A program made the translations under genes and the position numbers. Under the pieces are notes generated by a model, which was given only the letters and a program-made list of their open reading frames with translations, was not told the DNA's origin and searched no databases. From positions 1 through 20,460 of the IMG/VR virus record IMGVR_UViG_3300006805_000209: a stretch of DNA of 20,460 bases. The stretch is one strand, 5' to 3'. Origin of the DNA: a virus. Position 1 is the first letter of the stretch. Every line of letters begins with the position of its first letter. Below are positions 6,934 to 20,263 of this stretch, piece by piece.

Positions 6934-6949
6934 CAGACTACGCGGTGTC

Positions 6950-7025: not shown

Positions 7026-7045
7026 CAAGAGGGGTGCTGGTTGTA

Positions 7046-7237: not shown

Positions 7238-7761
7238 GAGGTGCTTACAAGACCGAGCCTTACAGCGTCGTCTTCATAACCCTTGTGGATAGAAGCCAGC
7301 TTACCAAGCTCCCTCTTGGTCTCCTCTTTGCTAGGCCGCCCAGCACTCCTTGAGTTCCACTTACCCTCTGCTAACCACTTAGCTGCGTCTGTCTTCCCCT
7401 CTGCCAGCTTACGCATGTGGAGGAAGGCTTCCCGGCGTAGCTTAATCTCCAACTCATCCCTCCATGCCGTAATGTAGGGGACGAACCACTGGGGGCCGTC
7501 TGGCCCTGCCAAGCGTTGCCAAGCCTCCCAAGAGCCGAGGGCTTGAAGGGCGAAGTCATACTCCGTAGGGTCGGCCACCTCAAGATAGATGTCCTTGAGA
7601 CTAACTACCCCTTTGTAGTCCCCCGCACGTAAGGCGTAGACTGGCGGCTCGGTGGATGTCGTAAGTCCTGGGGCATCAACAAACAAAGACACAGTACGGA
7701 TACGGTTAGAGCCATCCCTAATACTATCAAGGTCTACTCCCCACTTATTGATGTTAGGCAA
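7234..7761 (-). CDS. terS: Probable terminase small subunit
   Basis: The product has 175 residues. The start is TTG at 7761-7759, overlapping the end of the protease gene, with CGGAG 7 bases upstream; no in-frame ATG exists before codon 116. The centre holds a charged helical part (WRDELEIKLRREAFLHMRKL), followed by AAKWLAEGKWNSR and AGRPSKEETKRELGKL. The latter is a pattern I know from small terminase or DNA maturase A proteins of podovirus-type phages, where it serves DNA recognition or large-subunit contact. Position next to the large terminase agrees. The strong promoter for the downstream genes begins within its stop codon. Assignment rests on the C-terminal pattern and synteny. Confidence 0.7.
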   Translation of the reverse strand: MPNINKWGVDLDSIRDGSNRIRTVSLFVDAPGLTTSTEPPVYALRAGDYKGVVSLKDIYLEVADPTEYDFALQALGSWEAWQRLAGPDGPQWFVPYITAWRDELEIKLRREAFLHMRKLAEGKTDAAKWLAEGKWNSRSAGRPSKEETKRELGKLASIHKGYEDDAVRLGLVSTS

Positions 7762-8245
7762 TCCGAATCTCCGTTACGTTACCATTGGTGTTCAGGTCTA
7801 CCCGTGAAGCGATTAGCACAGCCTCTCCCGGTGTCTTACCGGCAAGCATTGCTCCAAGGGCGATGTCCCCACCAGAGCCTGTGGCCATCGTCTTACGGAC
7901 CTCAAGGACGCTCTCGGCGTAACCAGCCATGAACACCCGGCCTTGCTCCGTAAGGATAAGAGCGTGGGTCTCCGATGGGTGTGGGGCTTCGTCTCCGAAG
8001 TCCTCCTCTGGGTTGTACACGTTCGTTCTTAGGAACACACTATCCCCTACATAGGACTCGCTGATGTACTCCAAGAGGCTTTGCATATGGACAAAAGCCC
8101 CAGAGCAACCTACCAGTAGGGTCTCCCCTGCCTTCTCTACAAAGAGCTTGACGATCTTGTCATCATCCTCTTTGAGAATACGGTCACCCATGACCAGACG
8201 ACCGTCTGCTGCCATAGCCTTACCATCTGTTGCAATTGTAGTCAT
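7754..8245 (-). CDS. HslV-like Ntn-hydrolase (proteasome-type peptidase)
   Basis: The product has 163 residues from the ATG at 8245-8243, preceded by GAGGG at 10 bases. A ten-residue upstream extension is possible but would bury the nucleophile. The N-terminus MTTIATDGK gives a Thr after Met removal, as in HslV. AADGR supplies the Asp equivalent to HslV Asp17, DDDKIVKLF matches the Lys33 region, and TGSGGDIALGAM near residues 121-132 matches the GSGG segment with the catalytic Ser. HslV itself has about 175 residues. No HslU partner is seen nearby. It is the first gene of the leftward virion block, so a role in head maturation or in degrading host proteins is possible but unproven. Confidence 0.85.
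   Translation of the reverse strand: MTTIATDGKAMAADGRLVMGDRILKEDDDKIVKLFVEKAGETLLVGCSGAFVHMQSLLEYISESYVGDSVFLRTNVYNPEEDFGDEAPHPSETHALILTEQGRVFMAGYAESVLEVRKTMATGSGGDIALGAMLAGKTPGEAVLIASRVDLNTNGNVTEIRIA
8025..8036. repeat. Dispersed palindromic site, GTTCTTAGGAAC (11/12)
   Basis: One change from GTTCTYRAGAAC. It lies inside the HslV-like gene in a different codon phase from the other copies (codons TTC CTA AGA ACG). Confidence 0.55.
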
Positions 8246-8395
8246 ACGGTCATATCCCTCAATCATTGAGCACAAGGGTGCAGGTGTATCGAAATAAGTG
8301 GTATAAGCTTGGAGCGACCTATCGGGAGCGACAAGTACAGCTATCCCCTCTTACTTAATACAATCTATCTTGTTCGTTTGATTCTTTATAGTGTT

Positions 8396-8636: not shown

Positions 8637-8648
8637 GTTCTTAAGAAC
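8637..8648. repeat. Dispersed palindromic site, GTTCTTAAGAAC (12/12, perfect palindrome)
   Basis: The only copy with a fully self-complementary centre; with flanks it reads TGTTCTTAAGAACA, 14 bases. It is intergenic and immediately precedes the TTACAC repeat cluster. Confidence 0.85.
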
Positions 8649-8651
8649 ATG

Positions 8652-8718
8652 TTACACTATAACATTACACATACAACGTTATAACATTACACTACATTCC
8701 CGATCAGTATACATTCCC
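8652..8718. repeat. AT-rich direct-repeat cluster (candidate origin or operator)
   Basis: TATAACATTACAC occurs at 8658-8670 and 8680-8692, 22 bases apart, that is two helical turns. TTACAC also occurs at 8652-8657. TACATTCCC then occurs twice, near 8692-8701 and 8709-8717. Helically phased short direct repeats in an AT-rich intergenic region resemble iterons or tandem operators. No initiator gene is seen nearby. Confidence 0.55.
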
Positions 8719-8728
8719 AGACAATGTT

Positions 8729-8742
8729 AGTGAGTACTTACA
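8729..8742. repeat. Second copy of the AGTGAGTACT palindrome
   Basis: AGTGAGTACTTACA differs from the 8607-8620 palindrome at two positions near its right end. Confidence 0.5.
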
Positions 8743-8972
8743 TACAGTATTGGCTCTGTCAGTGCCGCCAATGGTAAGTAGTACCTAAGTTATTGATTTT
8801 ATTGGGTACTGTTATCTATAGTGTTTTGTCCGGCTCTTCTTTCCTTATAGTATAAGGTAAAGGTACTGTCCTTCTGTCCAGTAGTATTCCTGTTTTAGAT
8901 AGGGTTTAATGGCGCTTCTCCAGTGACGAATTGGGGAGGCAGCAAGCTCTTTAGACCTGTAGTGTTAGGTAC

Positions 8973-9001
8973 TTGACAAGGGTTGGTTATTGGGGTTTAA
9001 T
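8973..9001 (+). promoter_or_regulatory. Rightward sigma70 promoter
   Basis: TTGACA (8973-8978), 17-base spacer, TTTAAT (8996-9001). One mismatch in the -10 box. Start is expected near 9008, giving about 700 bases of leader before the first gene at 9703. Confidence 0.8.
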
Positions 9002-9017
9002 GGCCACCTCGTTGCAA

Positions 9018-9075
9018 GGGTAGTTAGGCAGTGGGATGTACACTTTAAACCATCGTATAAATGGTTTAACTACCC
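9018..9075 (+). other. Nested stem-loop just after the rightward promoter
   Basis: GGGTAG (9018-9023) pairs with CTACCC (9070-9075) and encloses TTAAACCAT (9045-9053) pairing with ATGGTTTAA (9061-9069) over a 7-base loop. It would form about 10-15 bases into the transcript from 8973. No T-run follows, so it is not an intrinsic terminator. Confidence 0.55.
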
Positions 9076-9148
9076 TAAAGAGAAGCGTATCCATCTAGTC
9101 GTGGGCAAACGGTCTTGAGCAACATAGAGTCAACAACCTAACACGGGG

Positions 9149-9177
9149 TTGACAAGCGCTAAAGGTTCCGGCAGAAT
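9149..9177 (+). promoter_or_regulatory. Possible second rightward promoter
   Basis: TTGACA (9149-9154), 17-base spacer, CAGAAT (9172-9177, 4 of 6). The surrounding word GGGGTTGACAA also occurs at the third candidate. It overlaps predicted RNA stems, so the match may be incidental. Confidence 0.45.
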
Positions 9178-9244
9178 GGGAACCTCAATGGAAGCCAGAA
9201 CAACGGCGGAGACGGTGGAAGCCCGGTCCCCCTTAGGCAAGGGG

Positions 9245-9273
9245 TTGACAACGAGTTGGCCTTCAAGTAAAGT
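9245..9273 (+). promoter_or_regulatory. Possible third rightward promoter
   Basis: TTGACA (9245-9250), 17-base spacer, TAAAGT (9268-9273, 4 of 6). It shares GGGGTTGACAA with the 9149 candidate. Confidence 0.45.
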
Positions 9274-9633
9274 TGTGGTGTGGTCGGGCAGGATGCCCGG
9301 TCTCGATTGTAACAGTGTAGGATGTTTTAAGATGGTAGTAGTCTGCCTGAAGCCTGAACCATAACAGGTCGCTGGGAGCCCGCCGCGTAACCAAAGGGGG
9401 TAGGGGTAGAAAGGCGGTTCTTTGCCTGCATACTTTGTCTACAGTCCCAAGCAAGCTGTTTTTGCTTGGTTCCCGAAAGGGTAATTCTGTAGGAACGTAA
9501 GGTGTAAGCTAGGGAACAACATTCTACTAGAGTGTCCGGGGTCATAGCCGGGTATGCTCTAGCAGGTGCGCCAGATAAATCCCCGGCCTTTGTGCCTATC
9601 AGGACTGGCAATCCGCAATGATAGGTACAAGGG

Positions 9634-9671
9634 AAGCGCATTCCTAAGAACGTTTGTTCTTGAGTGTGCTT
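9634..9671 (+). other. Hairpin built on a dispersed palindrome, before the first rightward gene
   Basis: Bases 9634-9643 pair with 9662-9671 (two G-U pairs), then after a CT bulge AAGAAC (9646-9651) pairs with GTTCTT (9656-9661) over loop GTTT. Each arm holds a copy or partial copy of the dispersed palindrome (ATTCCTAAGAAC at 9640-9651, 10/12). It ends in GTGCTTCAC (first base 9666), shared with the hairpin at 10182. It lies 32 bases before the first start codon. Confidence 0.6.
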
Positions 9672-9702
9672 CACCTTGTAAACCCACGAAGAGAGCGCCA
9701 TC

Positions 9703-9864
9703 ATGGCTAAGAAACAAAGCACTATCGGTACAATGATGAGTCTTGAACTGTCACGTCACACCATGCGCCAGAATGCCAATGCGCGTAGTGTTGAAATCCG
9801 CAAGGTGAAGCGTGCTGCCAAGGCGCGTGCCAAGGCTATTGGCTCGGTTTGGGATGACGAGTAA
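9703..9864 (+). CDS. Small basic hypothetical protein, 53 aa
   Basis: It reads MAKKQSTIGTMMSLELSRHT at the start, then an Arg/Lys/Ala-rich helix (VEIRKVKRAAKARAKAIG) and an acidic end, WDDE. It is too short for family assignment. The strongly basic helix could bind nucleic acid. It is the first gene of the rightward block; the stop overlaps the next start (TAATG). The ribosome site is weak (AGAGAG about 9 bases upstream). I do not recognise it. Confidence 0.65.
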   Translation: MAKKQSTIGTMMSLELSRHTMRQNANARSVEIRKVKRAAKARAKAIGSVWDDE

Positions 9865-10022
9865 TGAAACCCGACACGTACTTCATAGCCGCACTTGTTT
9901 GTGCTGTTGAGGGTGCAAGCGCGACAGCCACCACTGTCTGCGCTGTCGTTATGACAATCCTGTATATCTGGAGTGACAGACGTGCAAATATCTCTAGTAA
10001 TGCTACTGCTGGCTCTGAATAG
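9864..10022 (+). CDS. Small membrane protein, 52 aa
   Basis: The protein begins MKPDTYFIAALVCAVEGASA and continues with a second hydrophobic run, VCAVVMTILYIW, then a polar tail with SDRR. It has one long or two short membrane segments with a positively charged cytoplasmic-type end. The start overlaps the previous stop. Function is unknown; small early membrane proteins of phages often act in superinfection exclusion or lysis, but nothing here decides it. Confidence 0.6.
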   Translation: MKPDTYFIAALVCAVEGASATATTVCAVVMTILYIWSDRRANISSNATAGSE

Positions 10023-10179
10023 CCAAGCCCTTCCGCCTGACGTAGAGGCTGAGTGTGACGACCACGTTGCTGCCCTTCGCACCATTAAAGGGCACGACGT
10101 GGTTTTTTCGTGTGAGGATAACGTGTGGTTGTCGTGGTCACAATGGGCCAACTATGGAGAAACTACACCTGCACACTGA
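9982..10179 (+). CDS. Small exported protein, 65 aa, overlapping the previous gene
   Basis: I chose the GTG at 9982 because TGGAG lies 8 bases upstream, inside the previous gene. It overlaps that gene by 41 bases in another frame. The N-terminus, MQISLVMLLLALNSQALPPD, looks like a signal peptide with possible cleavage near residue 15. The rest is polar with two Cys residues (in EAECDDH and FSCEDN) that could form a disulphide in the periplasm. I do not recognise the family. Arrangement with an embedded start recalls Rz/Rz1 pairs, but there is no lipobox and the upstream protein is not Rz-like. Confidence 0.55.
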   Translation: MQISLVMLLLALNSQALPPDVEAECDDHVAALRTIKGHDVVFSCEDNVWLSWSQWANYGETTPAH

Positions 10180-10181
10180 GC

Positions 10182-10225
10182 TTGATTAACCAAGCATGTT
10201 CTTAGGAACGTGCTTCACTAATCAA
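10182..10225. repeat. 44-base interrupted inverted repeat with a dispersed palindrome at its centre
   Basis: TTGATTA (10182-10188) pairs with TAATCAA (10219-10225). Inside, after a symmetric ACC/CAC mismatch, AAGCATGTTCTT pairs with AGGAACGTGCTT (12 bp, two G-U). The centre is GTTCTTAGGAAC (10198-10209, 11/12). It sits between the exported-protein gene and the 171-aa gene. It could be an RNase III-type processing hairpin, an attenuator or an operator; no T-run follows. Confidence 0.75.
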
Positions 10226-10248
10226 CCACAGTCCCGGAGACTGCTATT

Positions 10249-10764
10249 ATGTCGTACAATAACCTCGGTGTTGCCCTGTCTGCTCTGGTTGTCCTGCCTA
10301 ACCGTGAGGACGTGCTCAAGACAGACCTCATGCTTCACGACGCTGGCGCTGCTTTGAAGGAGAAGGGCGTGGATCAGTTCAAGATGCACCTGCTGATGAC
10401 CTTACAGGCTGAAGATGTTAGCCAGTACTTTGACACCTATGCGGCAGACTTCAAGAAGCTGTCCGGTGAGAAGGCTATGCCGACGCACTTCCGTACCAAC
10501 AAGTGTGTCCTGCTTGCCTGCGAGAAGCTCGGAATCCCTGTGCTTGATGCTGCTGGCTTGCCTCGTGGCAAGTCTGAGCTGGACAAGGCAATTGCTGAAG
10601 CCAAGAACCCAAAGACCCCACTGGAGAAGGCACTGGATGCACTTGGTCGCATGGCCAAGGCAAGTGATGAGTGTACGCAGGCTGAGCTTGACGTGCTTAT
10701 CAACGCTGTGTCTGAGAGCTTCCCCCAGTTGGTTGTGGTCAGCCGTACAGCGGCTGCTGCCTGA
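10249..10764 (+). CDS. Hypothetical 171-aa helical protein
   Basis: ATG is preceded by GGAG at 9 bases. The protein is soluble, mostly helical, with charged Ala/Leu/Lys-rich segments (ELDKAIAEAKNPKTPLEKAL) and an Ala-rich C-terminus. No known motif is visible. It follows the 44-base inverted repeat and precedes a gene for an exported protein with a 10-base gap. I do not recognise it. Context within the early rightward block, before the VWA/AAA+ pair, suggests an accessory role. Confidence 0.75.
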   Translation: MSYNNLGVALSALVVLPNREDVLKTDLMLHDAGAALKEKGVDQFKMHLLMTLQAEDVSQYFDTYAADFKKLSGEKAMPTHFRTNKCVLLACEKLGIPVLDAAGLPRGKSELDKAIAEAKNPKTPLEKALDALGRMAKASDECTQAELDVLINAVSESFPQLVVVSRTAAAA

Positions 10765-10774
10765 GAGGTGAGCC

Positions 10775-11059
10775 ATGAGCAAGACAGGTATCCTGACACT
10801 AGGTGTCCTGTTAGGGCTGGCACTGGGTACATTCATCCAGTGCAGTCCTGATACCCCGTCCCTTGCCGCTCTTAGGAACGGCGAGGGCACTTACTTTGAT
10901 GTGCCTGAGTTCAAGCACGACATGGTGTTGGCTGCGTACTGTGATACAGTACCGGCTGACGCCTATGTGCATGGCTCTGTGCTGTCCACTAACACAGGCT
11001 ACACGTTCCAGTACCGCTCATGCGGTGAGGCTCGGGCAATGGGAGTAATACCTAAGTGA
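10775..11059 (+). CDS. Small exported or membrane-anchored protein, 94 aa
   Basis: The N-terminus MSKTGILTLGVLLGLALGTF is a signal-anchor or signal peptide, followed by IQC. The Cys has Gln at -1, which is not a proper lipobox, so lipoprotein status is doubtful. The mature part holds three more Cys or charged positions and no known domain. AGAGG lies 6-8 bases upstream of the ATG, and the stop overlaps the GTG start of the VWA gene. A degenerate dispersed site (10868-10879) lies in codons for ALRN. Function unknown; periplasmic side exposure is inferred. Confidence 0.7.
   Translation: MSKTGILTLGVLLGLALGTFIQCSPDTPSLAALRNGEGTYFDVPEFKHDMVLAAYCDTVPADAYVHGSVLSTNTGYTFQYRSCGEARAMGVIPK
10868..10879. 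repeat. Degenerate dispersed site, GCTCTTAGGAAC (10/12)
   Basis: Two changes from consensus, in codons for ALRN of the 94-aa exported protein, in the common codon phase. Confidence 0.4.
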
Positions 11060-12726
11060 GTACACCAGATAAGCTGGACCTTACTACCTTCTTTCGCTCT
11101 ACTACCAGCCAGTTGCTTGACTTGGGTCAGGCTGCACTTGGCAAGGCAGGGCGTGTTAAACCTTTCGACTGGAGCAAAGGCTCCCTCGTTCACGTTGATG
11201 GCAATACGTTGAACGTTGCCCGTATCAAACAAGATGCAAGTCCTGAGACTAAGGCACAGTTGCGCCGCCAGATATACCTTGGTGCTGAGTCCATCATCGA
11301 GCGTGGCGACAAGACTATCGACGTTCTCAAGAACGCCGAGGTCAAGAGCATCGCTCGTGTGTTGGATAGTGGCCGGCTGCGTAACGTACTCACTGACAAG
11401 TACGCTGGAGACAAGCTGCTCTTTGCCACTGAGGCATCTGATGCAGTACCCATGCTACAGACAGCGCATCCCGCAGAGGCAATCACTAACCTGCTGGCCA
11501 TGAACCGTAGCCTGAGCTTGGATACGTCCAGTGCCCTTGCTATGGCACAGTTGATGGCAGAGCGTGAGGATGTGCGTGAGCTGTGGACCAAGCTGCAAGA
11601 CGAGGGTATCTTAGCTGACGCTCTCAAGATGAGGACAAAGCAAGAGGCCGTTGACTTGGCAGAGCGCCTGCTTAAGTTCTTCAAGGACAATGATGTTGAG
11701 CCACCACCTGAGGAACAACCTTCTGGTGGTGGTGGTGGAGACGGTGATGCCGAGGGCGATGAAGGCCAGCCTAAGGATGGCGGTGATGGCTCTGAGCGTG
11801 GTGATAACGCAGGCTTTGGTAAGGACGGCAGCCCCTCATATGAGAACATCGGTGGCGTTCTCAAGAACGAGCTTGATGACCCCGGCAGACAGCCTGAGGT
11901 AGCAGAGTCTGGTGTTGAGCCAACTGATGTTATCATCTGGGACTACACAGCCATACCCAATGCCAACACCCATGCCGAGCAACGTATCCAACGGTACGTC
12001 GATGACAATGATCGGCTTGGGCATGAGCTTTCCCGTCTGCTGCAAGTGCGTAGTGCCTCACGGTATGAGCATCTGCAAAAGCGTGGCAAGGTTAGCCAGT
12101 CTCACATACACCGTGTTGCCTTGCCTACGATGGGTAGTGGTAGCTGGAATGCCAGTGTGTTCAAGAAGAAGAAGGTGTCTGACTGCCTTGACACAGCGGT
12201 AACCCTGCTGGTTGACTGCTCTGGTTCCATGTCTGGTGAGAAGTACTACGCTGCCAGTGCCAGCGCCGTTATCATGGGCAACGCCCTTGATGTAGTGCAC
12301 GTACCCTTCGAGGTGCTTGGGTTCACTGACTCAAGCTACAACGCTGTTATCCCTGTGTTCAAGACGTTCAGCTCGGGCTGGTCGCCCTTGAATTGTGTCG
12401 CTGGTTTTGGTAAGATGGAGTACCACCTGAATGCCAACCCGGACAGCGTGGCTGTGCAGGTAGCATCGGAGCGCTTGAAGATGAGGAAGAACAAGCGCAA
12501 GGTGTTGATCGTCCTGTCGGATGGTATGCCGTCATCGTTCCTACGGGATGGTGCTGGCTCTCTGAAGGCAGCGGTACGCCATGCCACGGAGAGTGGTGTT
12601 GAGGTGTACGGTATTGGCATCAACTCTGAGGCGGTGCGCCAGTTCTACAAGCAATGCACTGTCGTCAATGACTACTCCAAGCTGAGCGCAACCCTGCTCT
12701 CTGTGCTTGACAATCAACTTTCTTGA
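11056..12726 (+). CDS. CobT-like VWA domain protein
   Basis: The product has 556 residues from a GTG that overlaps the previous stop (AAGTGA), with GGGAG 10 bases upstream. Residues 1-210 are helical. Residues 214-258 form a Gly/Asp/Glu-rich flexible linker, as in cobaltochelatase CobT relatives. The VWA domain follows with a MIDAS motif DCSGSMSG at 387-394, and VLIVLSDGMPS with Asp489. Such proteins bind Mg2+ at the MIDAS site and pair with a MoxR/CobS AAA+ ATPase, encoded next door 15 bases downstream. Similar VWA/AAA+ pairs occur in N4-like and other phages with unclear function; cobalamin synthesis is unlikely here. It carries two exact copies of the dispersed palindrome, each encoding VLKN. 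Confidence 0.9.
   Translation: MSTPDKLDLTTFFRSTTSQLLDLGQAALGKAGRVKPFDWSKGSLVHVDGNTLNVARIKQDASPETKAQLRRQIYLGAESIIERGDKTIDVLKNAEVKSIARVLDSGRLRNVLTDKYAGDKLLFATEASDAVPMLQTAHPAEAITNLLAMNRSLSLDTSSALAMAQLMAEREDVRELWTKLQDEGILADALKMRTKQEAVDLAERLLKFFKDNDVEPPPEEQPSGGGGGDGDAEGDEGQPKDGGDGSERGDNAGFGKDGSPSYENIGGVLKNELDDPGRQPEVAESGVEPTDVIIWDYTAIPNANTHAEQRIQRYVDDNDRLGHELSRLLQVRSASRYEHLQKRGKVSQSHIHRVALPTMGSGSWNASVFKKKKVSDCLDTAVTLLVDCSGSMSGEKYYAASASAVIMGNALDVVHVPFEVLGFTDSSYNAVIPVFKTFSSGWSPLNCVAGFGKMEYHLNANPDSVAVQVASERLKMRKNKRKVLIVLSDGMPSSFLRDGAGSLKAAVRHATESGVEVYGIGINSEAVRQFYKQCTVVNDYSKLSATLLSVLDNQLS
11323..11334. repeat. Dispersed palindromic site, GTTCTCAAGAAC (12/12)
   Basis: Exact match, in frame as VLKN (residues 90-93) of the VWA protein. 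Confidence 0.85.
11857..11868. repeat. Dispersed palindromic site, GTTCTCAAGAAC (12/12)
   Basis: Exact match, in frame as VLKN (residues 268-271) of the VWA protein, 534 bases after the previous copy. Confidence 0.85.
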
Positions 12727-12741
12727 TAGGAGAACTACCCC

Positions 12742-13830
12742 ATGAGTACTACTACTACTGTGTCTGCTGAGGAACTGTTGAACACTATCGCAGCGACCCG
12801 CCGTCAGGTATTGAAGGATGCTGCTGCCACAATGGCTGAGTCCCCTGTTGAGGATGGCCCTACCAAATCTGCTATCGTTCTCAAGAACGGGGAACAGTTG
12901 TTCTCTGCTGTGTTTGGCTTCGTTCCTCCTGTGCGTGGTGACTTTGCTGTGCCAGTCCATACCACTGCTGACTGGCCAAGCTGGGCACATGCCTACATCC
13001 CGAGCAAGAATGAGCAGCACATCTGGTCACAGAAAGAGACTGAGATGGTTGTCTCTGCCATGATTCGTGGTAAGCGTAGTGGTCTTATCCACGGCCCCAA
13101 GGGCTGTGGTAAGTCGCAGCTTGGTGAGCAGGTGTGTGCCTACCTGTGCATCCCTTTCTTCCGTGTCAATCTGTCCGAAGATGCGGAGGGTAGCCGTGTG
13201 TTTGGTGCTCCCAACGTCATCGAGGGTAGCCTTGACTGGACTAAGGGCATGGCTGAGATGGCTGCTGAGATCGGTGGTGTGTTGTGTGTGGACGAAGTGT
13301 CTGCTGCACCTCCCGGTATCAACCTCAACATGCAATGGATGCTTGAGAAGAACGGCAAGATTCTCCTTGAGAACAAGCCGGAGCAGGCTGGTGAACGTCT
13401 GATCGTTCCTAAGAGCGGCTTCTTCGTGCTGTGTACTGATAACACACAGTTGCAGGGTGACACCACAGGTAAGTACGGTGGCACACAGGTGCAGAACGAA
13501 GCGTTCATTGACCGTATGCAGTTCGTCATTGCGATGGGCTACATGGACCCGGCCAAGGAGATCGAGATGATTAAGGGCTACTACAAGAAGCTGCGTAAGG
13601 AGACAGCTACCAAGATGGTTACGCTTGCAACACAGATTCGTAACCTGTACGACAACAAGAAGGTTGGCCTCACCATCAGCCCTCGTGGCCTGCTGGAATG
13701 GGCAGAGGAGGCGGTGGACACCGGCTCTATCCCCGAGGCTTTCCGTTACACCATCTATGATAAGTTCATGGATGCCGACAAGACACAGGTGAATGACCTG
13801 TTTATGCGTGTGTTCGGTGTGCCCCTGTAA
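12742..13830 (+). CDS. CobS/MoxR-like AAA+ ATPase
   Basis: The product has 362 residues; AGGAG lies 10 bases before the ATG. Walker A is GPKGCGKS at 118-125, Walker B VLCVDE at 180-185, a sensor-1 Asn in CTDN near 234, and an arginine-finger candidate in FIDRMQF. The segment between Walker B and sensor 1 contains the extra helix-type insert (ALNMQWMLEKNGKI-like) seen in MoxR/CobS proteins. It would form a ring that remodels a target, with the upstream VWA protein as adaptor. In this phage the target is unknown. The two genes are adjacent and clearly form one unit. An exact dispersed site at 12877 encodes VLKN. Confidence 0.9.
   Translation: MSTTTTVSAEELLNTIAATRRQVLKDAAATMAESPVEDGPTKSAIVLKNGEQLFSAVFGFVPPVRGDFAVPVHTTADWPSWAHAYIPSKNEQHIWSQKETEMVVSAMIRGKRSGLIHGPKGCGKSQLGEQVCAYLCIPFFRVNLSEDAEGSRVFGAPNVIEGSLDWTKGMAEMAAEIGGVLCVDEVSAAPPGINLNMQWMLEKNGKILLENKPEQAGERLIVPKSGFFVLCTDNTQLQGDTTGKYGGTQVQNEAFIDRMQFVIAMGYMDPAKEIEMIKGYYKKLRKETATKMVTLATQIRNLYDNKKVGLTISPRGLLEWAEEAVDTGSIPEAFRYTIYDKFMDADKTQVNDLFMRVFGVPL
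12877..12888. repeat. Dispersed palindromic site, GTTCTCAAGAAC (12/12)
   Basis: Exact match, in frame as VLKN (residues 46-49) of the AAA+ protein. Confidence 0.85.
13405..13416. repeat. Degenerate dispersed site, GTTCCTAAGAGC (10/12)
   Basis: In frame as VPKS in the AAA+ gene; the same 12 bases recur at 18096-18107 in the helicase gene. Another degenerate match, CTCCTTGAGAAC (10/12), lies 42 bases before it at 13363. Confidence 0.45.
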
Positions 13831-13839
13831 GGGGTGCAC

Positions 13840-13851
13840 GTTCTCAAGAAC
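13840..13851. repeat. Dispersed palindromic site, GTTCTCAAGAAC (12/12), intergenic
   Basis: Exact match in the 52-base gap between the AAA+ stop and the next gene, 32 bases before that start codon. Because it is non-coding, it shows that the word is not merely a protein motif. Confidence 0.88.
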
Positions 13852-13882
13852 ATACCACCACAACAACGTAGGAGATTTACAT

Positions 13883-14311
13883 ATGAGTACTGCTGGAGAT
13901 AAACTGCTTGCCAAGTGTCTGACTATGGATGAGGCAGAGGCTTTGACTGCAAGCAAACCGGACATCCTCGACCGCTTGGTTGAACTGCGTGCCCAAGGGG
14001 TGCCCTTCACAATCAATGCTTGTGTCCCTACCGTATCGGGTGACGGGTCAGGTGCCTTTGCTATGCTGGTGACTGCGGGGTACGTCAACACTGACAGTGA
14101 TACACTCTCTGAGATCACACGGGACAATGATGAGAGCACAGGTACTCGTACTGTGGCGTTCCTTGTTCGTACTATGCGTGATGCTGCCTGCACTGTCCAG
14201 TGCGGGTTGAATGTTGCCGGGTCTACAGGTGACACGGAGACGGTGAGTAGTCTCATTGACTTTCTCGGAGAGTTGAATGAGTATGCCAACAAACCAGAGG
14301 TGACGCACTAA
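13883..14311 (+). CDS. Hypothetical 142-aa protein
   Basis: The start is the ATG at 13883 with GGAG 8 bases upstream; a longer in-frame reading begins inside the AAA+ gene and lacks a ribosome site. The protein is soluble and mildly acidic, beginning MSTAGDKLLAKCLTMDEAEA. No motif is recognised. The stop overlaps the next start (TAATG), so it is coupled to the 97-aa gene. It belongs to a run of small genes between the AAA+ ATPase and primase. Confidence 0.75.
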   Translation: MSTAGDKLLAKCLTMDEAEALTASKPDILDRLVELRAQGVPFTINACVPTVSGDGSGAFAMLVTAGYVNTDSDTLSEITRDNDESTGTRTVAFLVRTMRDAACTVQCGLNVAGSTGDTETVSSLIDFLGELNEYANKPEVTH

Positions 14312-14604
14312 TGAACAAACAACACAACCACATGACCTTCTACCGTGATGGCCGTGAGTTTCAGGTGGTACGTCTGGTTCACCTCACCCCTATCAGTGCC
14401 TCCCGTAAGGCCCGTGATGGCAAGGTGTGGAAGACTGTGGCTACCGTGAAGGATATGTACAACGGTGTTGAAGCCACTGGTATTGCGTGGTGTGGCCGTA
14501 AGGACAACCCCTCCCGCAAGACAGGGCGTAACATTGCCATTGGTCGTGCTGTTGCAAAGCTGTCGCCACTTCGTGGCGTTCTCAAGAACACTGGAAAGGA
14601 GTAA
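14311..14604 (+). CDS. Hypothetical 97-aa basic protein
   Basis: The start overlaps the preceding stop. The protein is basic (for example ISASRKARDGKVWKTVATVK and RKDNPSRKTGRN) and beta-strand rich in its first half, so nucleic acid binding is possible but unproven. An exact dispersed site at 14578-14589 encodes VLKN just before the C-terminus, where the protein ends GVLKNTGKE. I do not recognise a family. Confidence 0.7.
   Translation: MNKQHNHMTFYRDGREFQVVRLVHLTPISASRKARDGKVWKTVATVKDMYNGVEATGIAWCGRKDNPSRKTGRNIAIGRAVAKLSPLRGVLKNTGKE
14578..14589. repeat. Dispersed palindromic site, GTTCTCAAGAAC (12/12)
   Basis: Exact match, in frame as VLKN near the end of the 97-aa protein, about 20 bases before the start of the next gene. 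Confidence 0.85.
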
Positions 14605-14608
14605 CAAC

Positions 14609-14995
14609 ATGACTAACAAATCCAACGCCCTTCTGGGTAACCTCGGCATGATTCTTGGTATGAGCTGGACTGTGGCAGATACGCCCGGTGAGCTTGAGTC
14701 TCTTGGTATTACTGGTGATGGTGCCAAGGGTTTCCGGGCTATGTCAGAGGGCCAAGCCAATACGCTCAAGATGCTGATGAGCAAGACTCTTGAGGCAGCC
14801 AAGGCGTCCAAGGATGCCGACACGCTGGAGGCTATCATCGCCTTCTCCGAGGGTGTTATTGACGGGATTGAGAAAACGAGGGCGAACATCGAAGCTGCTA
14901 AGAGTGACCCCTTCCCTGAGAACCCAACACCAAAGGAGGCTGAGAGTGCGCTTGACGCTGTGATGGCCATCATCAACAAGATGAAAGGGAGCTAA
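14609..14995 (+). CDS. Hypothetical 128-aa helical protein
   Basis: The ATG at 14609 has GGAG 7 bases upstream and follows the previous stop by 4 bases. The protein is largely helical with Ala, Lys and Glu-rich segments (LKMLMSKTLEAAKASKDADT) and a Pro-rich break near residue 105. No catalytic motif is visible. Its neighbours are a basic protein and a zinc-finger protein. Not recognised. Confidence 0.75.
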   Translation: MTNKSNALLGNLGMILGMSWTVADTPGELESLGITGDGAKGFRAMSEGQANTLKMLMSKTLEAAKASKDADTLEAIIAFSEGVIDGIEKTRANIEAAKSDPFPENPTPKEAESALDAVMAIINKMKGS

Positions 14996-14999
14996 GGCT

Positions 15000-15185
15000 A
15001 TGCGGTGTATCGCTTGTGATGCGCCGCTGTCTGTCTCGGAAAGCCCGTGGCTACCAGAGCACGGGCGGTTCGAGGATATGTGCAGGCGGTGCCGTGGTAC
15101 TATCGTTGAACAGACCGAGCTGCCTACCAACAGTGAGTTATTGGAGGCGGGTGAGGACACACTGGCCGACCTTCCTTGGGAGTAG
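15000..15185 (+). CDS. Small zinc-finger protein, 61 aa
   Basis: Two CxxC pairs, Cys3-Cys6 (CIAC) and Cys28-Cys31 (CRRC), fit a single zinc ribbon. The C-terminal half is acidic. It sits 4 bases before the primase gene, so it may help replication or transcription, for example as a DNA-binding adaptor, but this is inference from position. Length is too small for anything beyond one domain. Confidence 0.75.
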   Translation: MRCIACDAPLSVSESPWLPEHGRFEDMCRRCRGTIVEQTELPTNSELLEAGEDTLADLPWE

Positions 15186-15188
15186 AGC

Positions 15189-16166
15189 ATGGCAACGTAC
15201 CTACGTTCCGATGAGTATGTACCTTTCGCTCCTAAGAACGTGGGTACAGTCCACATTAACCACGCTAACTGCCCTGCCGGAGAGGATAGGAAGAAGCGTT
15301 TATACATAACGAGGTGTCAAAATGGAACAGTGGTTGCCTATTGTCATCATTGTACTCTGCGTGGCAGCGCCAAGTCTGGTGGGCTGGCCTTGGGTGGAGG
15401 TCGTCGTGAGTTACTTGGCTCTCTACGTACCGTGGAAGATGCAAAAGATCATGGCGGAAGTAAAGAAGATCAACGGAAGCGGTGGGTCGGGTCTTGCAAG
15501 TTCCCTAGCAAAAGCTCGTTCGAGCCTGCGGAGTGGCCACAAGAAGTAAGAGCATGGTATCAAGGCTTTGGTATCACAGACGAGGAGGCACGCAAGTATG
15601 GCTTTGGTTTTGTTAGTGATGGGTTCTACGCTGGTCGTCTTGGGTTGCCTTGTTATGCTAGTGGTAAGCTCAACGGAATCCAGTTTCGTAACATCTGTGC
15701 AACGTCAGGACCAAAGTATCTTTCACGCTTTGCGGACCAAGCCGGAGGCATCAGTGCGACCGCTACTTCTGAAGATGCAGCAGTCACAGAGAGAAAGTAC
15801 TTTGATAGTCAACAAGTTGCTCCTGCTATCGGGAGTGCTACTAGCACCGGGAATGGCGCTGCTGTTCTTGGGAACGCTGTCGTCGTAGTGGAGGACGTAC
15901 TCTCTGCTATCAAGGTGGGCAGGCACTGTCGGGCCATTGCGTGCTTGACAAGTACTGCCCCAGAGAATATAATGTTGAGCCTCGCTGCGTCAGGGTACAC
16001 CACCTGTTACGTGTGGCTTGATAATGACAACACCGATGTGAACAGAAAGGCAAGGTCTATCGAGAGGCATCTTGGCCTGTTCTTTCCGCGTGTTGTGTTT
16101 GTTACAGACCACGCTGACCCCAAGCACTACAGCGATGAGGAGATTCTCAATGTTCTTTCGAGCTAA
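15189..16166 (+). CDS. DNA primase (TOPRIM type)
   Basis: The product has 325 residues; GGGAG lies 6 bases before the ATG. Zinc ligands Cys28, Cys43, Cys52 and Cys55 (CHHC) form an N-terminal zinc-binding domain. The TOPRIM part shows VVVVEDVLSA with Glu235 and VWLDNDN with Asp277 and Asp279, the metal-binding acidic residues. This is the size of a stand-alone phage primase without fused helicase; the helicase is encoded about 0.7 kb downstream. It would lay RNA primers at the fork. Residues 57-110 are unusually rich in Gly, Ser, Lys and Arg and may be a linker. Two hydrophobic +1-frame ORFs lie inside the gene. The end overlaps the next gene by 17 bases. Confidence 0.88.
   Translation: MATYLRSDEYVPFAPKNVGTVHINHANCPAGEDRKKRLYITRCQNGTVVAYCHHCTLRGSAKSGGLALGGGRRELLGSLRTVEDAKDHGGSKEDQRKRWVGSCKFPSKSSFEPAEWPQEVRAWYQGFGITDEEARKYGFGFVSDGFYAGRLGLPCYASGKLNGIQFRNICATSGPKYLSRFADQAGGISATATSEDAAVTERKYFDSQQVAPAIGSATSTGNGAAVLGNAVVVVEDVLSAIKVGRHCRAIACLTSTAPENIMLSLAASGYTTCYVWLDNDNTDVNRKARSIERHLGLFFPRVVFVTDHADPKHYSDEEILNVLSS
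15228..15239. repeat. Degenerate dispersed site, GCTCCTAAGAAC (10/12)
   Basis: In frame as APKN near the N-terminus of the primase. Confidence 0.4.
15322..15549 (+). CDS. Possible overprinted holin-like membrane protein inside the primase gene (speculative)
   Basis: In the +1 frame of the primase gene an ATG with GAGG 7 bases upstream opens 75 codons. The product has two hydrophobic segments (about 5-22 and 26-38: MEQWLPIVIIVLCVAAPSLV, then VVVSYLALYV) and a basic, Gly/Ser-rich tail ending in RSGHKK, which is the layout of a small holin. It covers the low-complexity linker of the primase. Against it, +1 frames over T-ending codons tend to be hydrophobic by chance. Treat it as a candidate only. 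Confidence 0.25.
   Translation: MEQWLPIVIIVLCVAAPSLVGWPWVEVVVSYLALYVPWKMQKIMAEVKKINGSGGSGLASSLAKARSSLRSGHKK
15864..15875. repeat. Dispersed palindromic site, GTTCTTGGGAAC (11/12)
   Basis: In frame as VLGN in the primase, a few residues before the TOPRIM motif. Confidence 0.6.
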
Positions 16167-16506
16167 GAATGTTGTTGGGATATGGGAAGTGCCCATACTG
16201 CGAGACCCACAGGATCATTGGTTCCGGTCTAAGACGATTGTTGTTAAGGTCCACGACCCTGCTTGGGGGTATGAGTGGGTTGTAGTAACGGCGAGTGACT
16301 TGTGCTTCCACACCACGGCCCAATGCAAGACACGTTGGGACTTTGTACAAGCACAGCCATCCTGCACTGTTCTTGAGAACGATATGTACCGTAAACTTCT
16401 TGTGGAGGCAGCACAACAAGGCAGGGTTATGTGCCTATACGTACCCACACCAAAGATTAACAGGCTGTACGCTATCCACGAAGCACTAGCCAAGGTGACG
16501 CCATGA
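16150..16506 (+). CDS. Hypothetical 118-aa protein
   Basis: I chose the ATG at 16150 because GAGGAG lies 7 bases upstream; it overlaps the primase end by 17 bases. The protein starts MFFRAKNVVGIWEVPILRDP and is mixed alpha/beta with several Trp residues. No motif is recognised. It carries an exact dispersed site encoding VLEN. Its stop overlaps the next start, so it forms a coupled chain from primase to the 103-aa gene. Confidence 0.7.
   Translation: MFFRAKNVVGIWEVPILRDPQDHWFRSKTIVVKVHDPAWGYEWVVVTASDLCFHTTAQCKTRWDFVQAQPSCTVLENDMYRKLLVEAAQQGRVMCLYVPTPKINRLYAIHEALAKVTP
16369..16380. repeat. Dispersed palindromic site, GTTCTTGAGAAC (12/12)
   Basis: Exact match in the opposite orientation of the asymmetric centre, in frame as VLEN of the 118-aa protein. 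Confidence 0.85.
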
Positions 16507-16814
16507 TGGTTCTACCCATACCAGTAGAGGATATAGCTTACTTGCTGACCTGTACTACAGGCAAAGTGTACTCTGCTGTAGAGACTACTTGGCACATTCT
16601 TGTCACGAAGAAGGGGTACATCTACTACCACACTAGCCCTGAGAATCTACTCTTGTACATTAGTGATTGCCTGATAAGCGGCAATATGGGTGATGACGAC
16701 CTGCCCGGTTCGTTACGAAGAGCGCCTGAACGCGCTGTTATGCTGTACGACCACAACACAGACACACCGGAACAGGCTTGGCCTGTGCTTAGCATATGGG
16801 GTGTTGCTTGTTAG
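16503..16814 (+). CDS. Hypothetical 103-aa protein
   Basis: The ATG overlaps the previous stop (ATGA). The protein begins MMVLPIPVEDIAYLLTCTTG and has several beta strands and aromatic residues; it is not a membrane protein. No motif is recognised. It is followed by a 45-base gap and the helicase gene. It is probably real given the tight coupling and codon use like its neighbours. Confidence 0.65.
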   Translation: MMVLPIPVEDIAYLLTCTTGKVYSAVETTWHILVTKKGYIYYHTSPENLLLYISDCLISGNMGDDDLPGSLRRAPERAVMLYDHNTDTPEQAWPVLSIWGVAC

Positions 16815-16859
16815 GCACAGCTTTCCCCGGATTCTTATTCAATCTTCAGGAGTACATTC

Positions 16860-18137
16860 GTGTCAATAGAAGTTGATCTTCTCCACGTTCTCAAGAACGT
16901 TGAGAACTACAGTAAGTACCGTAAGTACGTCAAGTCTGACTTCGTATCGAAAGAATGCAACACTCTTATTGATGCGATAGGTACATACCACAAGCGATAT
17001 GGCAAGGACGTTGACGATTTCAAGGACTTCTACACATGGCTCGTCACGGTTGGGGGCACATGGACAGAGGGTGAGCGCAAGTTCTTCAAGCTCGTCACTG
17101 ACAAGCTGGCTGCATACACACCGGATGACGCTGCTGATGAGATTATGATGCGGTTCCAGTGCATGAACTGGGCCGAACAGCAGATTCCAATCATGGAAAA
17201 GATGGCAAGAGAGGGAGACCCCGATGCTCTACATGATATGCGGGATAGTATTAACCTTGTGTATGATGACGTTGCCTCCACAGGAGACGAGAAGTTCGTT
17301 ACTAAGAACATCAAAGATATTCTTGCAGCCCACGTCACAAGTGGTGGGTACAACTGGCGGTTTGATGAACTCAACAAGATGGCTGGACCTATCCGTCCCG
17401 GCGACTTTGTTATCGTGGTCGCAAGGCCCGAGACAGGCAAGACTTCATTCATCTTTAGTGAGCTTACGAACTTTGCCCAACAGATGGGTGCAGGTGACAA
17501 GATTGTGGTGTTCAATAACGAAGAAGCAGGTGAGAAGCTTCTCCTCAGATCATACACTTGTGCGCTCGGTAAGTCTTCTCATGCTATTAGTGCTCTGGCT
17601 AATCCTGATGCAGACTATGTAAAAGCCCTTGGTGGTGAGGACCGTATCCTTGTCTATGATGATGAGGGTATCAGTACACATGACGTAGACCGTGTGCTTA
17701 GTTCTACCAAGCCGAAGGTTGTTGTGTTCAACATGCTGGAGAAGGTGCGTGGGTTTGAGCGTATGGATGAGACGGCAAGGCTCAAGGCTCTGGCAATGTG
17801 GGCACGAGGCTTAGGCAAGCGTTATGGCTGTATTGTCTTTGCTGTATGGCAGGCTGATGCACAGGCAGAAGGTGAACGCTTCATCCGAAAGAACCAAGTA
17901 TATGCCAGCAAGACTGGTGCTCCATCGGAAGCTGACCTCATCATTGGTATCGGAGCTACGTTTAATCCTGCGGAAGCAGACTATAGATTCTTCCACCTAT
18001 CCAAAAACAAGCTGGCCGGTGGCCCAACACGAGACCCGAAGCGTTCCCACGGCTACGCTGTGGCCCACTTTGACACAGAGACAGGTAGGTTCACCGTTCC
18101 TAAGAGCACGGCAACGACCCCTGTTGTGGAGGTATGA
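16860..18137 (+). CDS. DnaB-type replicative helicase (RecA-fold ATPase)
   Basis: The product has 425 residues from GTG, with AGGAG 7 bases upstream. Residues 1-150 are helical, like a DnaB N-domain. The RecA-fold part starts with GDFVIVVARPETGKTSF; the Walker A-like ARPETGKT is at 188-195. VFNNEE near 217-222 matches the H1a catalytic Glu. The Walker B strand reads KVVVFNMLEKV with Asn291 where Asp is usual. AVWQADAQAEG carries the H3 Gln, and HLSKNKLAGG the arginine-finger region. It would unwind DNA for the polymerase encoded next. The stop overlaps the polymerase start. An exact dispersed site encodes VLKN at residues 10-13. Confidence 0.88.
   Translation: MSIEVDLLHVLKNVENYSKYRKYVKSDFVSKECNTLIDAIGTYHKRYGKDVDDFKDFYTWLVTVGGTWTEGERKFFKLVTDKLAAYTPDDAADEIMMRFQCMNWAEQQIPIMEKMAREGDPDALHDMRDSINLVYDDVASTGDEKFVTKNIKDILAAHVTSGGYNWRFDELNKMAGPIRPGDFVIVVARPETGKTSFIFSELTNFAQQMGAGDKIVVFNNEEAGEKLLLRSYTCALGKSSHAISALANPDADYVKALGGEDRILVYDDEGISTHDVDRVLSSTKPKVVVFNMLEKVRGFERMDETARLKALAMWARGLGKRYGCIVFAVWQADAQAEGERFIRKNQVYASKTGAPSEADLIIGIGATFNPAEADYRFFHLSKNKLAGGPTRDPKRSHGYAVAHFDTETGRFTVPKSTATTPVVEV
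16887..16898. repeat. Dispersed palindromic site, GTTCTCAAGAAC (12/12)
   Basis: Exact match 27 bases into the helicase gene, followed at once by a partial second copy (GTTGAGAAC). Confidence 0.85.
17298..17309. repeat. Degenerate dispersed site, GTTACTAAGAAC (10/12)
   Basis: In frame as VTKN of the helicase. Confidence 0.35.
18096..18107. repeat. Degenerate dispersed site, GTTCCTAAGAGC (10/12)
   Basis: In frame as VPKS near the helicase C-terminus; identical to the copy at 13405-13416 in an unrelated gene. Confidence 0.45.
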
Positions 18138-20263
18138 TGAAGCCAGACCCAAAGCTGAAAAAGCAGCTACTCATGTGGCACCACAATACCGACGAAGGAT
18201 TGTGTGGTCTGATTGACCTTGAGACAGAGATAAACTTAGAGGTTGGAAGCCCCTCTGCCTACGTCAAAGGCACACATGTAGTGCTTGGTGGGACGCGAGG
18301 CTTCGGTGACAGTATGGTAGTAGTGGGGCGACGCGTAACAGCCTATACACACGGCCCCACAGGGTCTATCCCTGTTGTACTCGTTGGTCATAACGTGTCC
18401 TTTGACACCGCTCACAGTTTGATGGAGGCAACGCCCGCTTCTGCGGCGAACTTCCTGAAAGAGATGGCATCTGGTAAAGTTATACAGCACGATACACAGG
18501 ACATGGAGTACATCCTGTCTGGTCACCAAGAAACGTTTGGTTCTCTTGACACTCTGGCCGAGAACTACGGCGTTACAAAGAAGAAGGACACACTCAAGAC
18601 CTACCTTGATGCGGGTAAGAACGTGTCGGACGTACCTATTAAGGAGCTTACTGAGTACTTGAAGCAGGACTTGGACACTACAATGCAGGTAGTGCGTCGT
18701 CAGGCCGAGCTTCTTCCCGGTACATGTACGCCACAACAGATACATCTCGCTGCCTTGCGTCGTAACGTCACTACTATTATGATGCACAATGGTATGCCCT
18801 TCGACAACTTCCTTGCCATGCAGGAGCTAGGCAAGCTAGAGGAACAGATAGAGTTTATACAGAAGGAGTGGGATTTTGCGGTACGTGGTTGGTGGAGTGG
18901 TGGACTTGCTGGTCCTGTCAGTGACGCCTTTGAGGAGTGTGCACTAGGTGCCCTATCTTCACCAAAGAAACTACACACCCTGCTGTATGGTGGGGCACTT
19001 AAGTACACAGCAAAGACTCTTGTTGGTACGTATAAGAACGGTAAGCCTAAGTTTAAGAATGAGGCTTGTGAGACCACTGTCAGTGGGTACTTAATGCTAC
19101 GCCTTCATGCTACGGACACTAGAAGCACAGATGAATCAAGTCTCCAACGTATTCTTGACGAAGCTAAGAAGGCGGGTATCCCCATCATACCGCAGTCTGC
19201 ACTACGTTGTATTGAACTGTTGCTTGAGTACCGCAAGCTGTCGAAGGTAGCAGGCACCTACATTGGCCCTCTGCTGGCGATGGCAGAGAACTCCAAGGAT
19301 GGGCGTATACACCCTAGCCTGAACACAACAGCGACGCACACAGGGCGTCTTAGCTCGTCTAAGCCCAATGCCCAGAACATGCCAAGTGATAGCCCTGTCA
19401 AGGGTTTGTTCCGTGAGGATGGTTGGACCTGTATTGAAGGGGACTACAAGCAGCTTGAGATGATTGCTCTCGCTCTTAAGAGCGGGGATAAGCAACTCAT
19501 GCGTGATCTTGAGGGCGGTGTTGACATTCACTATGAGGTGGGTAAGCAGGTATTTGGTTGGACATCTACGTCTGACATGACTAAGGAAACACGACGCTTG
19601 GTCAAGTCTGTTGACTTTGGCCTTGTGTACGGTGGTGGTGCTAAGACATTGGCAGCACAGTCCGGTGCCGATGTTGCCATCGTACAGAACGTGATTGATT
19701 CTTTCTTCAAACGCTACCCCGGTGTCTTTGCGTATCACAAGAAGATGGAAGCGATAGCCAAGGATGCTTCCCTTGGTGTCCCTACTGGTGTCGCTCTTGA
19801 GAACGGGGCATCACAACGACGCATGACGTTGAAGTGTGACATTAGTGGTCGTCGCTACACAGTGCTTAGTTATGCAAGCAAGTACGGGCACAAGAAAGAC
19901 AGTAACTTCAGCCCCACTGAGTTGAAGAACTATCTGGTACAAGGTCTGGCTACTGCTGACTTCGTTCCCTTTGCTTGCTCTCTCGTCGCTAAGGCAATGG
20001 CTGCTGGTGGTTGGATGGATTTACAAGTGGATGGACAGCCCAAAGCAAAGCTCTGTAATACTGTGCATGACTCGATCATGGTGTGGGTAAAGGACGAGTA
20101 CGCTGAAGAGTTTGCAGGGTTCTTGAAGGCTACTATGGAGGCGGCGTGGCCTTTGATGTTTGACTTCTTCGGCTGTCCAGCCAAGCGGTTGAACACAGAA
20201 GTAGTAGCAGAGATTTCAATGGGGCCATCTTGGGGCGAAACAAAGGAGGTAAAGTTCACATGA
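18137..20263 (+). CDS. Family A DNA polymerase with 3'-5' exonuclease
   Basis: About 708 residues. Two ATGs lie in tandem at 18134 and 18137; GGAGG is only 1 base from the first and 4 from the second, so I favour the second. Numbering from the first Met, exonuclease motifs are IDLETE (Asp28, Glu30), GHNVSFD (Asp91) and YLKQD (Tyr175, Asp179). The thumb to palm region has IHPSLNTTATHTGRLSSSKP. Polymerase motif A is GDYKQLEM (Asp437), motif B RRLVKSVDFGLVYGG with Lys491 and Tyr499, motif C VHDS (His645, Asp646). All catalytic residues are present, so it is a full replicative enzyme of T7 type, without a 5' nuclease domain. It is coupled to the helicase gene. Confidence 0.96.
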   Translation: MKPDPKLKKQLLMWHHNTDEGLCGLIDLETEINLEVGSPSAYVKGTHVVLGGTRGFGDSMVVVGRRVTAYTHGPTGSIPVVLVGHNVSFDTAHSLMEATPASAANFLKEMASGKVIQHDTQDMEYILSGHQETFGSLDTLAENYGVTKKKDTLKTYLDAGKNVSDVPIKELTEYLKQDLDTTMQVVRRQAELLPGTCTPQQIHLAALRRNVTTIMMHNGMPFDNFLAMQELGKLEEQIEFIQKEWDFAVRGWWSGGLAGPVSDAFEECALGALSSPKKLHTLLYGGALKYTAKTLVGTYKNGKPKFKNEACETTVSGYLMLRLHATDTRSTDESSLQRILDEAKKAGIPIIPQSALRCIELLLEYRKLSKVAGTYIGPLLAMAENSKDGRIHPSLNTTATHTGRLSSSKPNAQNMPSDSPVKGLFREDGWTCIEGDYKQLEMIALALKSGDKQLMRDLEGGVDIHYEVGKQVFGWTSTSDMTKETRRLVKSVDFGLVYGGGAKTLAAQSGADVAIVQNVIDSFFKRYPGVFAYHKKMEAIAKDASLGVPTGVALENGASQRRMTLKCDISGRRYTVLSYASKYGHKKDSNFSPTELKNYLVQGLATADFVPFACSLVAKAMAAGGWMDLQVDGQPKAKLCNTVHDSIMVWVKDEYAEEFAGFLKATMEAAWPLMFDFFGCPAKRLNTEVVAEISMGPSWGETKEVKFT
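19472..19483. repeat. Degenerate dispersed site, GCTCTTAAGAGC (10/12, perfectly self-complementary)
   Basis: In frame as ALKS of the polymerase. Both outer positions changed symmetrically, so the palindrome is kept. Confidence 0.5.
19793..19804. repeat. Dispersed palindromic site, GCTCTTGAGAAC (11/12)
   Basis: In frame as ALEN of the polymerase. Confidence 0.6.

What the first reader, a model, noticed from the sequence alone, without database searches (positions are those of the whole stretch)
8637..18107. Dispersed sites are spaced about every 0.5 kb along the rightward block
Using copies with at most two mismatches, successive distances from 8637 are about 1003, 558, 670, 455, 534, 1020, 528, 435, 738, 650, 636, 505, 518, 411 and 798. 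Most fall between 400 and 740, and the two long ones are close to double. The leftward virion block of similar length has only four copies. Even spacing is unusual for operators and would fit a DNA-bridging or nucleoid-like protein, or repeated control along one transcript.
Basis: seen in the sequence. Interest (0 to 1): 0.68.

Follow-up and report, generated by a model that had tools for sequence, protein, structure and literature searches.

The report
Evenly spaced protein-binding sites on phage
This bacterial virus carries a 12-14 base palindrome at fairly even distances (about every 0.65 kb) through its early genes; relatives carry the same kind of array and keep it under strong selection, which points to a virus-made protein that organises or gates the viral DNA, though that protein and its job are not yet proven.

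Summary
The palindrome (consensus YGYTCYYRRGARCR) is by far the most over-represented 12-bp palindrome in the window: 21 copies with at most 2 mismatches, 18 of them from 8637 rightward. Codon-shuffled genes give about 1.5 against 16 in-gene copies. With them, gaps average 656 bp, CV 0.41, P about 1e-4 against random placement; spacing is even but not periodic. The array recurs in uncultured Zobellviridae-like podophages. Early blocks of eight relatives are also evenly spaced (combined P 2e-6); their virion blocks are not. Between two near-complete relatives at 89.5% DNA identity, 35 of 35 aligned sites remain sites, so the sites are under purifying selection. One small early gene (window 10249-10764) of no described family occurs in all seven site-bearing species that cover its locus and in none of four site-free relatives with adequate coverage; it may encode the binding protein. 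No lysogeny genes were recognised in the best relative, and sites ignore gene boundaries and promoters. I favour a phage-encoded DNA-organising protein (about 0.45); a transcription roadblock resembling mycobacteriophage stoperators is the main rival (about 0.30). Binding, bridging and the protein's identity are inferred, not shown.

The parts
8637..8648 (.). site GTTCTTAAGAAC (exact consensus), in the non-coding interval before the rightward block
9640..9651 (.). site ATTCCTAAGAAC, 63 bp before ORF 9703
10198..10209 (.). site GTTCTTAGGAAC, 51 bp before the 171-aa candidate gene
10868..10879 (.). site GCTCTTAGGAAC in ORF 10775-11059
11323..11334 (.). site GTTCTCAAGAAC in CobT/VWA gene
11857..11868 (.). 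site GTTCTCAAGAAC in CobT/VWA gene
12877..12888 (.). site GTTCTCAAGAAC in CobS-like AAA gene
13405..13416 (.). site GTTCCTAAGAGC in CobS-like AAA gene
13840..13851 (.). site GTTCTCAAGAAC in a 31-bp intergenic gap
14578..14589 (.). site GTTCTCAAGAAC at the 3' end of ORF 14311-14604
15228..15239 (.). site GCTCCTAAGAAC in primase gene
15864..15875 (.). site GTTCTTGGGAAC in primase gene
16369..16380 (.). site GTTCTTGAGAAC in ORF 16150-16506
16887..16898 (.). site GTTCTCAAGAAC in DnaB-type helicase gene
17298..17309 (.). site GTTACTAAGAAC in helicase gene
18096..18107 (.). site GTTCCTAAGAGC in helicase gene
933..944 (.). left-block site GTTCTTAAGAGC, intergenic
3336..3347 (.). left-block site GTTCTTAAGAGC in ORF 3201-3443 (-)
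8025..8036 (.). left-block site GTTCTTAGGAAC in the HslV-like peptidase gene (-)
10249..10764 (+). 171-aa early protein of the family called 'RSAKS' here; candidate cognate protein of the sites
   Evidence: co-occurrence with the sites; no Pfam, PHROG or GenBank-phage relative of note
11056..20263 (+). rightward early/replication block: CobT-like VWA, CobS-like AAA, primase, DnaB-type helicase, family-A DNA polymerase
1..8275 (-). leftward virion block (capsid, portal, terminase and others), sparse in sites (0.36 per kb against 1.48)

Best explanation
The palindromes are sites for a two-fold symmetric, site-specific DNA-binding protein made by the phage, probably the 171-aa early protein at 10249-10764 or a partner of it. 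It works on the phage genome as an architectural (nucleoid-like, bridging or nucleating) protein. Sites about 0.65-0.8 kb apart through the early half, and about every 2 kb through the virion half, let neighbouring bound dimers contact each other or seed local coating, so that the early region is folded or marked as one body. Shown here: the site array, its non-chance even spacing, recurrence in relatives, purifying selection on the sites, and indifference to gene boundaries. Inferred: that a phage protein binds, that it is this gene, and that the function is architectural.
For: Sites are real and numerous. Even spacing in the window (P about 1e-4) and in early blocks of eight relatives (Fisher P 2e-6 without the window), not in virion blocks (P 0.31). 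Pooled gaps of three dense early blocks: 3 below 200 bp against 13 expected, 30 at 400-800 bp against 13.6. Purifying selection: G049 against G063, 89.5% identity, 35/35 sites kept, 12-mer identity 0.983 against 0.898 for all 12-mers and 0.905 for near-match controls, virion-block sites included. Sites show no excess near gene ends and no second conserved element within 50 bp. The RSAKS gene is in 7/7 site-bearing species that cover its locus and 0/4 site-free relatives with adequate coverage. A search with that gene returned two more contigs, with 26 and 16 sites against 0 and 0 controls. G063, near-complete, has no recognised integrase, repressor or ParAB.
Against: No binding, bridging or compaction was measured. 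The RSAKS protein has no recognised DNA-binding domain; AlphaFold2 gave only pLDDT 54-55 and no solved-structure match. The two further contigs are close kin of species already in the set (88% protein identity, and an identical protein), so they are weak independent tests. Evenness confined to the early block is as easily explained by a role in early transcription.
Confidence: 0.45

Rival explanations
1. Transcription roadblocks or stoperator-like silencers: a phage repressor bound at each site arrests RNA polymerase, so one protein shuts or paces the whole early transcript at many points.
For: Density is 3-4 times higher in the early block of the window and about 2.4 times in G063. Functional precedent in Cluster A mycobacteriophages, with 20-30 dispersed sites and co-varying motifs (PMC6550527, PMC9283540); Trixie sites are also mildly even. 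Related phages use a shifted site, RTTACTAGTAAY, as repressor specificities do.
Against: Stoperators are asymmetric, oriented with transcription and lie in short intergenic spaces; these are palindromic and mostly inside genes. Virion genes that must be strongly expressed carry conserved sites, 7 of them in one 6-kb gene. No lysogeny module recognised in G063 and no clearly integrated relative in a scan of GTDB species genomes, only contigs binned in MAGs.
Confidence: 0.3
2. The sites are recognised by a host protein (regulator or chromosome organiser) that the phage recruits or mimics.
For: The host is unknown, so it cannot be excluded; the window also carries an exact E. coli SlmA consensus GTGAGTACTCAC at 8608 and a 1-mismatch copy at 8730.
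Against: Presence follows a phage gene and phage lineage, and the motif differs between phage lineages. Phages of 41 to 52% G+C share one site, which would need one factor in different hosts.
Confidence: 0.1
3. A role in replication, repair or self-marking of phage DNA (for example loading or protection sites used with the CobT/CobS-like pair next door).
For: Densest in the replication block and linked to a gene just 5' of cobT/cobS.
Against: CobT/CobS also occur in phages without sites (ICP2, G032, L009, L342). Replication would call for sites genome-wide, not enriched in its own genes.
Confidence: 0.1
4. A by-product of codon usage: GTT CTC AAG AAC (VLKN) is simply a favoured codon string.
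For: 15 of 16 in-gene sites of the window lie in one reading frame, and 93% of the codon-shuffle expectation falls in that frame.
Against: Only about 1.5 copies are expected against 16 seen; relatives use a second frame too; intergenic sites exist; the sites are conserved far above background.
Confidence: 0.01

Closest known systems
Stoperators of Cluster A mycobacteriophages (L5, Trixie; Rep repressor)
   Same: Tens of short conserved sites spread through a phage genome, lineage-specific motifs, mildly even spacing
   Different: L5-type sites are 13-bp asymmetric, bound by a monomer, oriented with transcription and placed in short intergenic spaces of temperate phages (PMC6550527, PMC9283540); here palindromic, mostly in genes, about four times denser in the early block, and no lysogeny genes recognised in the best relative
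SPBRE sites of Bacillus prophage SPbeta (MrpR master repressor)
   Same: Repeated short element read by one phage protein
   Different: SPBRE sits in promoter regions of a prophage (PMC10516654); these sites are not promoter-linked
Dispersed palindromes of Streptomyces phage phiC31
   Same: Palindromic 12-mer repeated 14 times across the genome (read from its sequence here)
   Different: Temperate phage; evenness and the protein that reads that palindrome were not tested here
SlmA-type chromosome-organising sites
   Same: Short palindromes spread over a chromosome and read by one protein
   Different: Far sparser (50 SlmA sites along the E. coli genome, PMC3116907); host, not phage, protein

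Membership tests
Cluster A-type stoperator system | Asymmetric site oriented with transcription | tested here: not met
   Site is a palindrome; central variants occur in both orientations
Cluster A-type stoperator system | Many dispersed copies of one site through the genome | tested here: met
   21 in the window, 36 in G049, 38 in G063
Cluster A-type stoperator system | Sites in short intergenic spaces or overlapping gene ends | tested here: not met
   16 of 21 in genes; no excess near gene ends in G063, P 0.10 in the window
Cluster A-type stoperator system | Temperate phage with immunity repressor | tested here: inconclusive
   No integrase, repressor or ParAB family among the G063 proteins scanned and no clearly integrated relatives, but an unrecognised repressor cannot be excluded and the window itself is a fragment
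Cluster A-type stoperator system | Bound repressor stops transcription elongation | not testable with these tools
   needs in vitro transcription
Nucleoid-like / bridging architectural protein system | Sites spaced by DNA distance rather than by genes | tested here: met
   Even spacing with no link to gene boundaries
Nucleoid-like / bridging architectural protein system | A protein that binds several sites at once and bends, coats or bridges DNA | not testable with these tools
   only a co-occurring candidate gene
ECF-sigma or other promoter array | Second promoter element at fixed distance | tested here: not met
   No conserved column above about 0.26 bit within 50 bp of 49 aligned sites, apart from the site and its two flanking bases
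Zobellviridae (the phage itself) | Portal, terminase and capsid genes related to family members, virion block opposed to early block | tested here: met
   Portal 44-49% to CRP-5, ICBM2, CW02, ICP2; TerL 46-53%; same block layout. Formal placement not attempted.

The most novel reading that the evidence does not exclude
A group of apparently lytic podophages encodes its own site-specific chromatin organiser: a small early protein of a new family reads a genome-wide array of palindromes held at a preferred spacing of about 0.65-0.8 kb by selection, folding or marking the early half of the genome during infection.
Probability: 0.33. Interest if true: 0.82.

Novelty: new variant of a known kind. 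Interest (0 to 1): 0.64.

Why it matters
Dispersed phage sites are known mainly as operators or stoperators of temperate phages. A conserved, evenly spaced, mostly intragenic array in phages without recognised lysogeny genes, together with a linked gene of unknown family, gives a concrete and cheap test of whether phages organise their own genome with sequence-specific architectural proteins, or silence a whole early operon at many points at once.

Tried and rejected
Codon-usage artefact: explains the single reading frame, not the number. Strict period or helical phasing: none. RNA hairpins: in the virion genes of G049 the variant sites read on the transcribed strand mostly as C.A mismatches rather than G.U pairs, so base pairing in mRNA is not what is kept (my reading of the list). 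Promoters: no second element. Operators at gene starts: no significant excess. Prophage relatives: only contigs binned in MAGs. Close relatives of the window's CobS or helicase by single-protein search: none for CobS, one distant locus for the helicase. Seven cultured Zobellviridae and five long uncultured relatives: no such array. Scan for the exact 14-mer in viral contigs: mostly single-copy chance hits. Two structure predictions of the candidate protein were too poor to use (pLDDT 54-55); fold searches gave no solved-structure match and only weak hits to uncharacterised phage proteins. L357 was dropped from the co-occurrence count because only 602 bp lie 5' of its cobT gene.

Full report
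WHAT IS IN THE WINDOW. The record is a 20460-bp viral contig with no more sequence held. Portal, terminase and capsid genes place it with the Zobellviridae: portal 44-49% identical to Roseobacter CRP-5, Lentibacter ICBM2, Salinivibrio CW02 and Vibrio ICP2. Genes at 1-8275 run left (virion); genes from 9703 run right (small early genes, CobT-like VWA, CobS-like AAA, primase, DnaB-type helicase, family-A polymerase). The full consensus is YGYTCYYRRGARCR; nearly all variation is transitions that keep the pyrimidine-purine pattern. Of all 4096 12-bp palindromes it is far the commonest (21 copies; the next unrelated one has 6).

IS IT MORE THAN CHANCE. Dinucleotide shuffles give 0.5 copies of the 14-mer at up to 3 mismatches against 22. 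A stricter null, shuffling codons within genes, gives 1.5 in-gene copies of the 12-mer at up to 2 mismatches against 16; copies with exactly 3 mismatches (12) fit that background and are not counted. The codon null also explains an oddity: 15 of 16 in-gene sites share one reading frame (GTT CTC AAG AAC and variants), because codon usage makes that frame the easy one; one of the other frames would put a stop codon in most variants. In relatives a second frame is used as well.

SPACING. With all 18, CV is 0.41 against 0.93 under random placement, P 9e-5, and the smallest gap (321 bp) has P 6e-5. Drawing null sites from near-match positions gives P 2e-5 to 4e-5; there is no strict period. So spacing is even in the sense of avoided close pairs and few long gaps. 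With at most 1 mismatch the result weakens to P 0.013 (n 9); the exact-12-mer test is too small (n 6).

RELATIVES. Terminase-related contigs mostly lack the array, but G010, G004 and G037 carry variants of the same site with no matches for the reversed-pattern control. Site-bearing terminases fall outside a large site-free clade. A search with a helicase alignment found G049 (45.8 kb, 36 sites), G050, G051, G052, and a lineage (G054, G055, G057, G058) with the shifted palindrome RTTACTAGTAAY. The early block of G049 has 21 sites, mean gap 728 bp, CV 0.50, P 7e-4; G052 CV 0.30, P 0.005; over eight relatives Fisher P is 2e-6, while virion blocks give 0.31. G064 gives CV 0.52, P 0.002. The block limits and motif sets were my choices, made after seeing whole-genome CVs (all below the null but mostly P 0.05-0.3), so the combined P is somewhat optimistic; some of the relatives are also close kin.

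SELECTION. G049 and G063 align over 42.5 kb at 89.5% identity. All 35 aligned sites remain sites; mean 12-mer identity is 0.983 against 0.898 for all 12-mers and 0.905 for near-match 12-mers; the changes seen are between allowed variants. In the G004 group at about 75% identity one site (G004 3829) is kept unchanged in every relative that covers it, another swaps GTTACTAAGAAC for GTTCTTAAGAAC, and others are gained or lost.

A LINKED GENE. The 171-aa protein at 10249-10764 belongs to a family (motif YRSAKSVI..A...I.LLD..G.P.GKSELE) found by profile search in the window, G049, G050, G051, G052, G054 and G055, that is every site-bearing species that covers the locus, and not in site-free CobT/CobS phages (ICP2, L009, G032, L342). 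L357 has too little 5' sequence to count, so the comparison is 7/7 against 0/4; shared ancestry could inflate it. A search with this gene then returned G063 and G064 with 26 and 16 perfect sites and no control matches, though both are near kin of known members. No Pfam or PHROG match for the window protein and no GenBank phage relative better than E 0.6 (the one Pfam row is below its cut-off); predicted structures were poor, with helices and a short hairpin but no reliable fold match.

HOW IT LIKELY WORKS. Shown: a conserved symmetric site array, evenly spaced in early blocks, not tied to gene ends, with no second element, in phages whose best relative shows no recognised lysogeny module. Inferred: a dimeric phage protein reads it. 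Spacing set by DNA distance, plus conserved sites inside virion genes that must be strongly expressed, favours an architectural role over roadblocks; the density excess in early genes favours the reverse. I give 0.45 to architecture, 0.30 to roadblocks, 0.10 to a host reader, 0.10 to replication or marking.

COMPARISON. It resembles stoperators in being a dispersed array but fails their defining asymmetry, orientation and intergenic placement (PMC6550527, PMC9283540), and SPBRE sites of SPbeta are promoter-linked (PMC10516654). I therefore file it as a new variant of dispersed phage site arrays, not as a member of either.

Noticed in passing
window 8608-8619 and 8730-8741: Exact copy and a 1-mismatch copy of the E. 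coli SlmA (nucleoid occlusion) consensus GTGAGTACTCAC in the non-coding interval between the blocks; may hint at a gammaproteobacterial host or at recruitment of a division inhibitor. Not seen in the other site-bearing contigs tested except one 1-mismatch copy in G037.
   Followed up: partly
window 8276-9702: 1.4-kb interval without convincing genes between the blocks, no Rfam match.
   Followed up: partly
window 6950-7116: tRNA-Asn and tRNA-Ser genes on the - strand next to the terminase gene.
   Followed up: no
window 7754-8275: HslV/proteasome-like peptidase gene (PHROG 1040); a 'putative proteasome beta subunit' is annotated in Klebsiella phage Klyazma too.
   Followed up: no
L431 13094-13573 (G063), and G049, G055, G057, G058: Site-bearing phages carry a sigma-70 region-2 (ECF-like) factor in the distal part of the early block.
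   Followed up: partly
L010 (phage GX1-k141_326647) 41781, 42234, 43760, 45573: A different palindrome, TTGTCTAGACAA, repeated four times in the early region of another Zobellviridae member.
   Followed up: no
L233 (phiC31), 14 places: The palindromic 12-mer ACTCACGTGAGT occurs 14 times across the genome, including the virion half.
   Followed up: no
L336 3437-4147: The RSAKS homolog of G050 has an extra N-terminal domain matching PHROG 11307 and relatives of unknown function.
   Followed up: no
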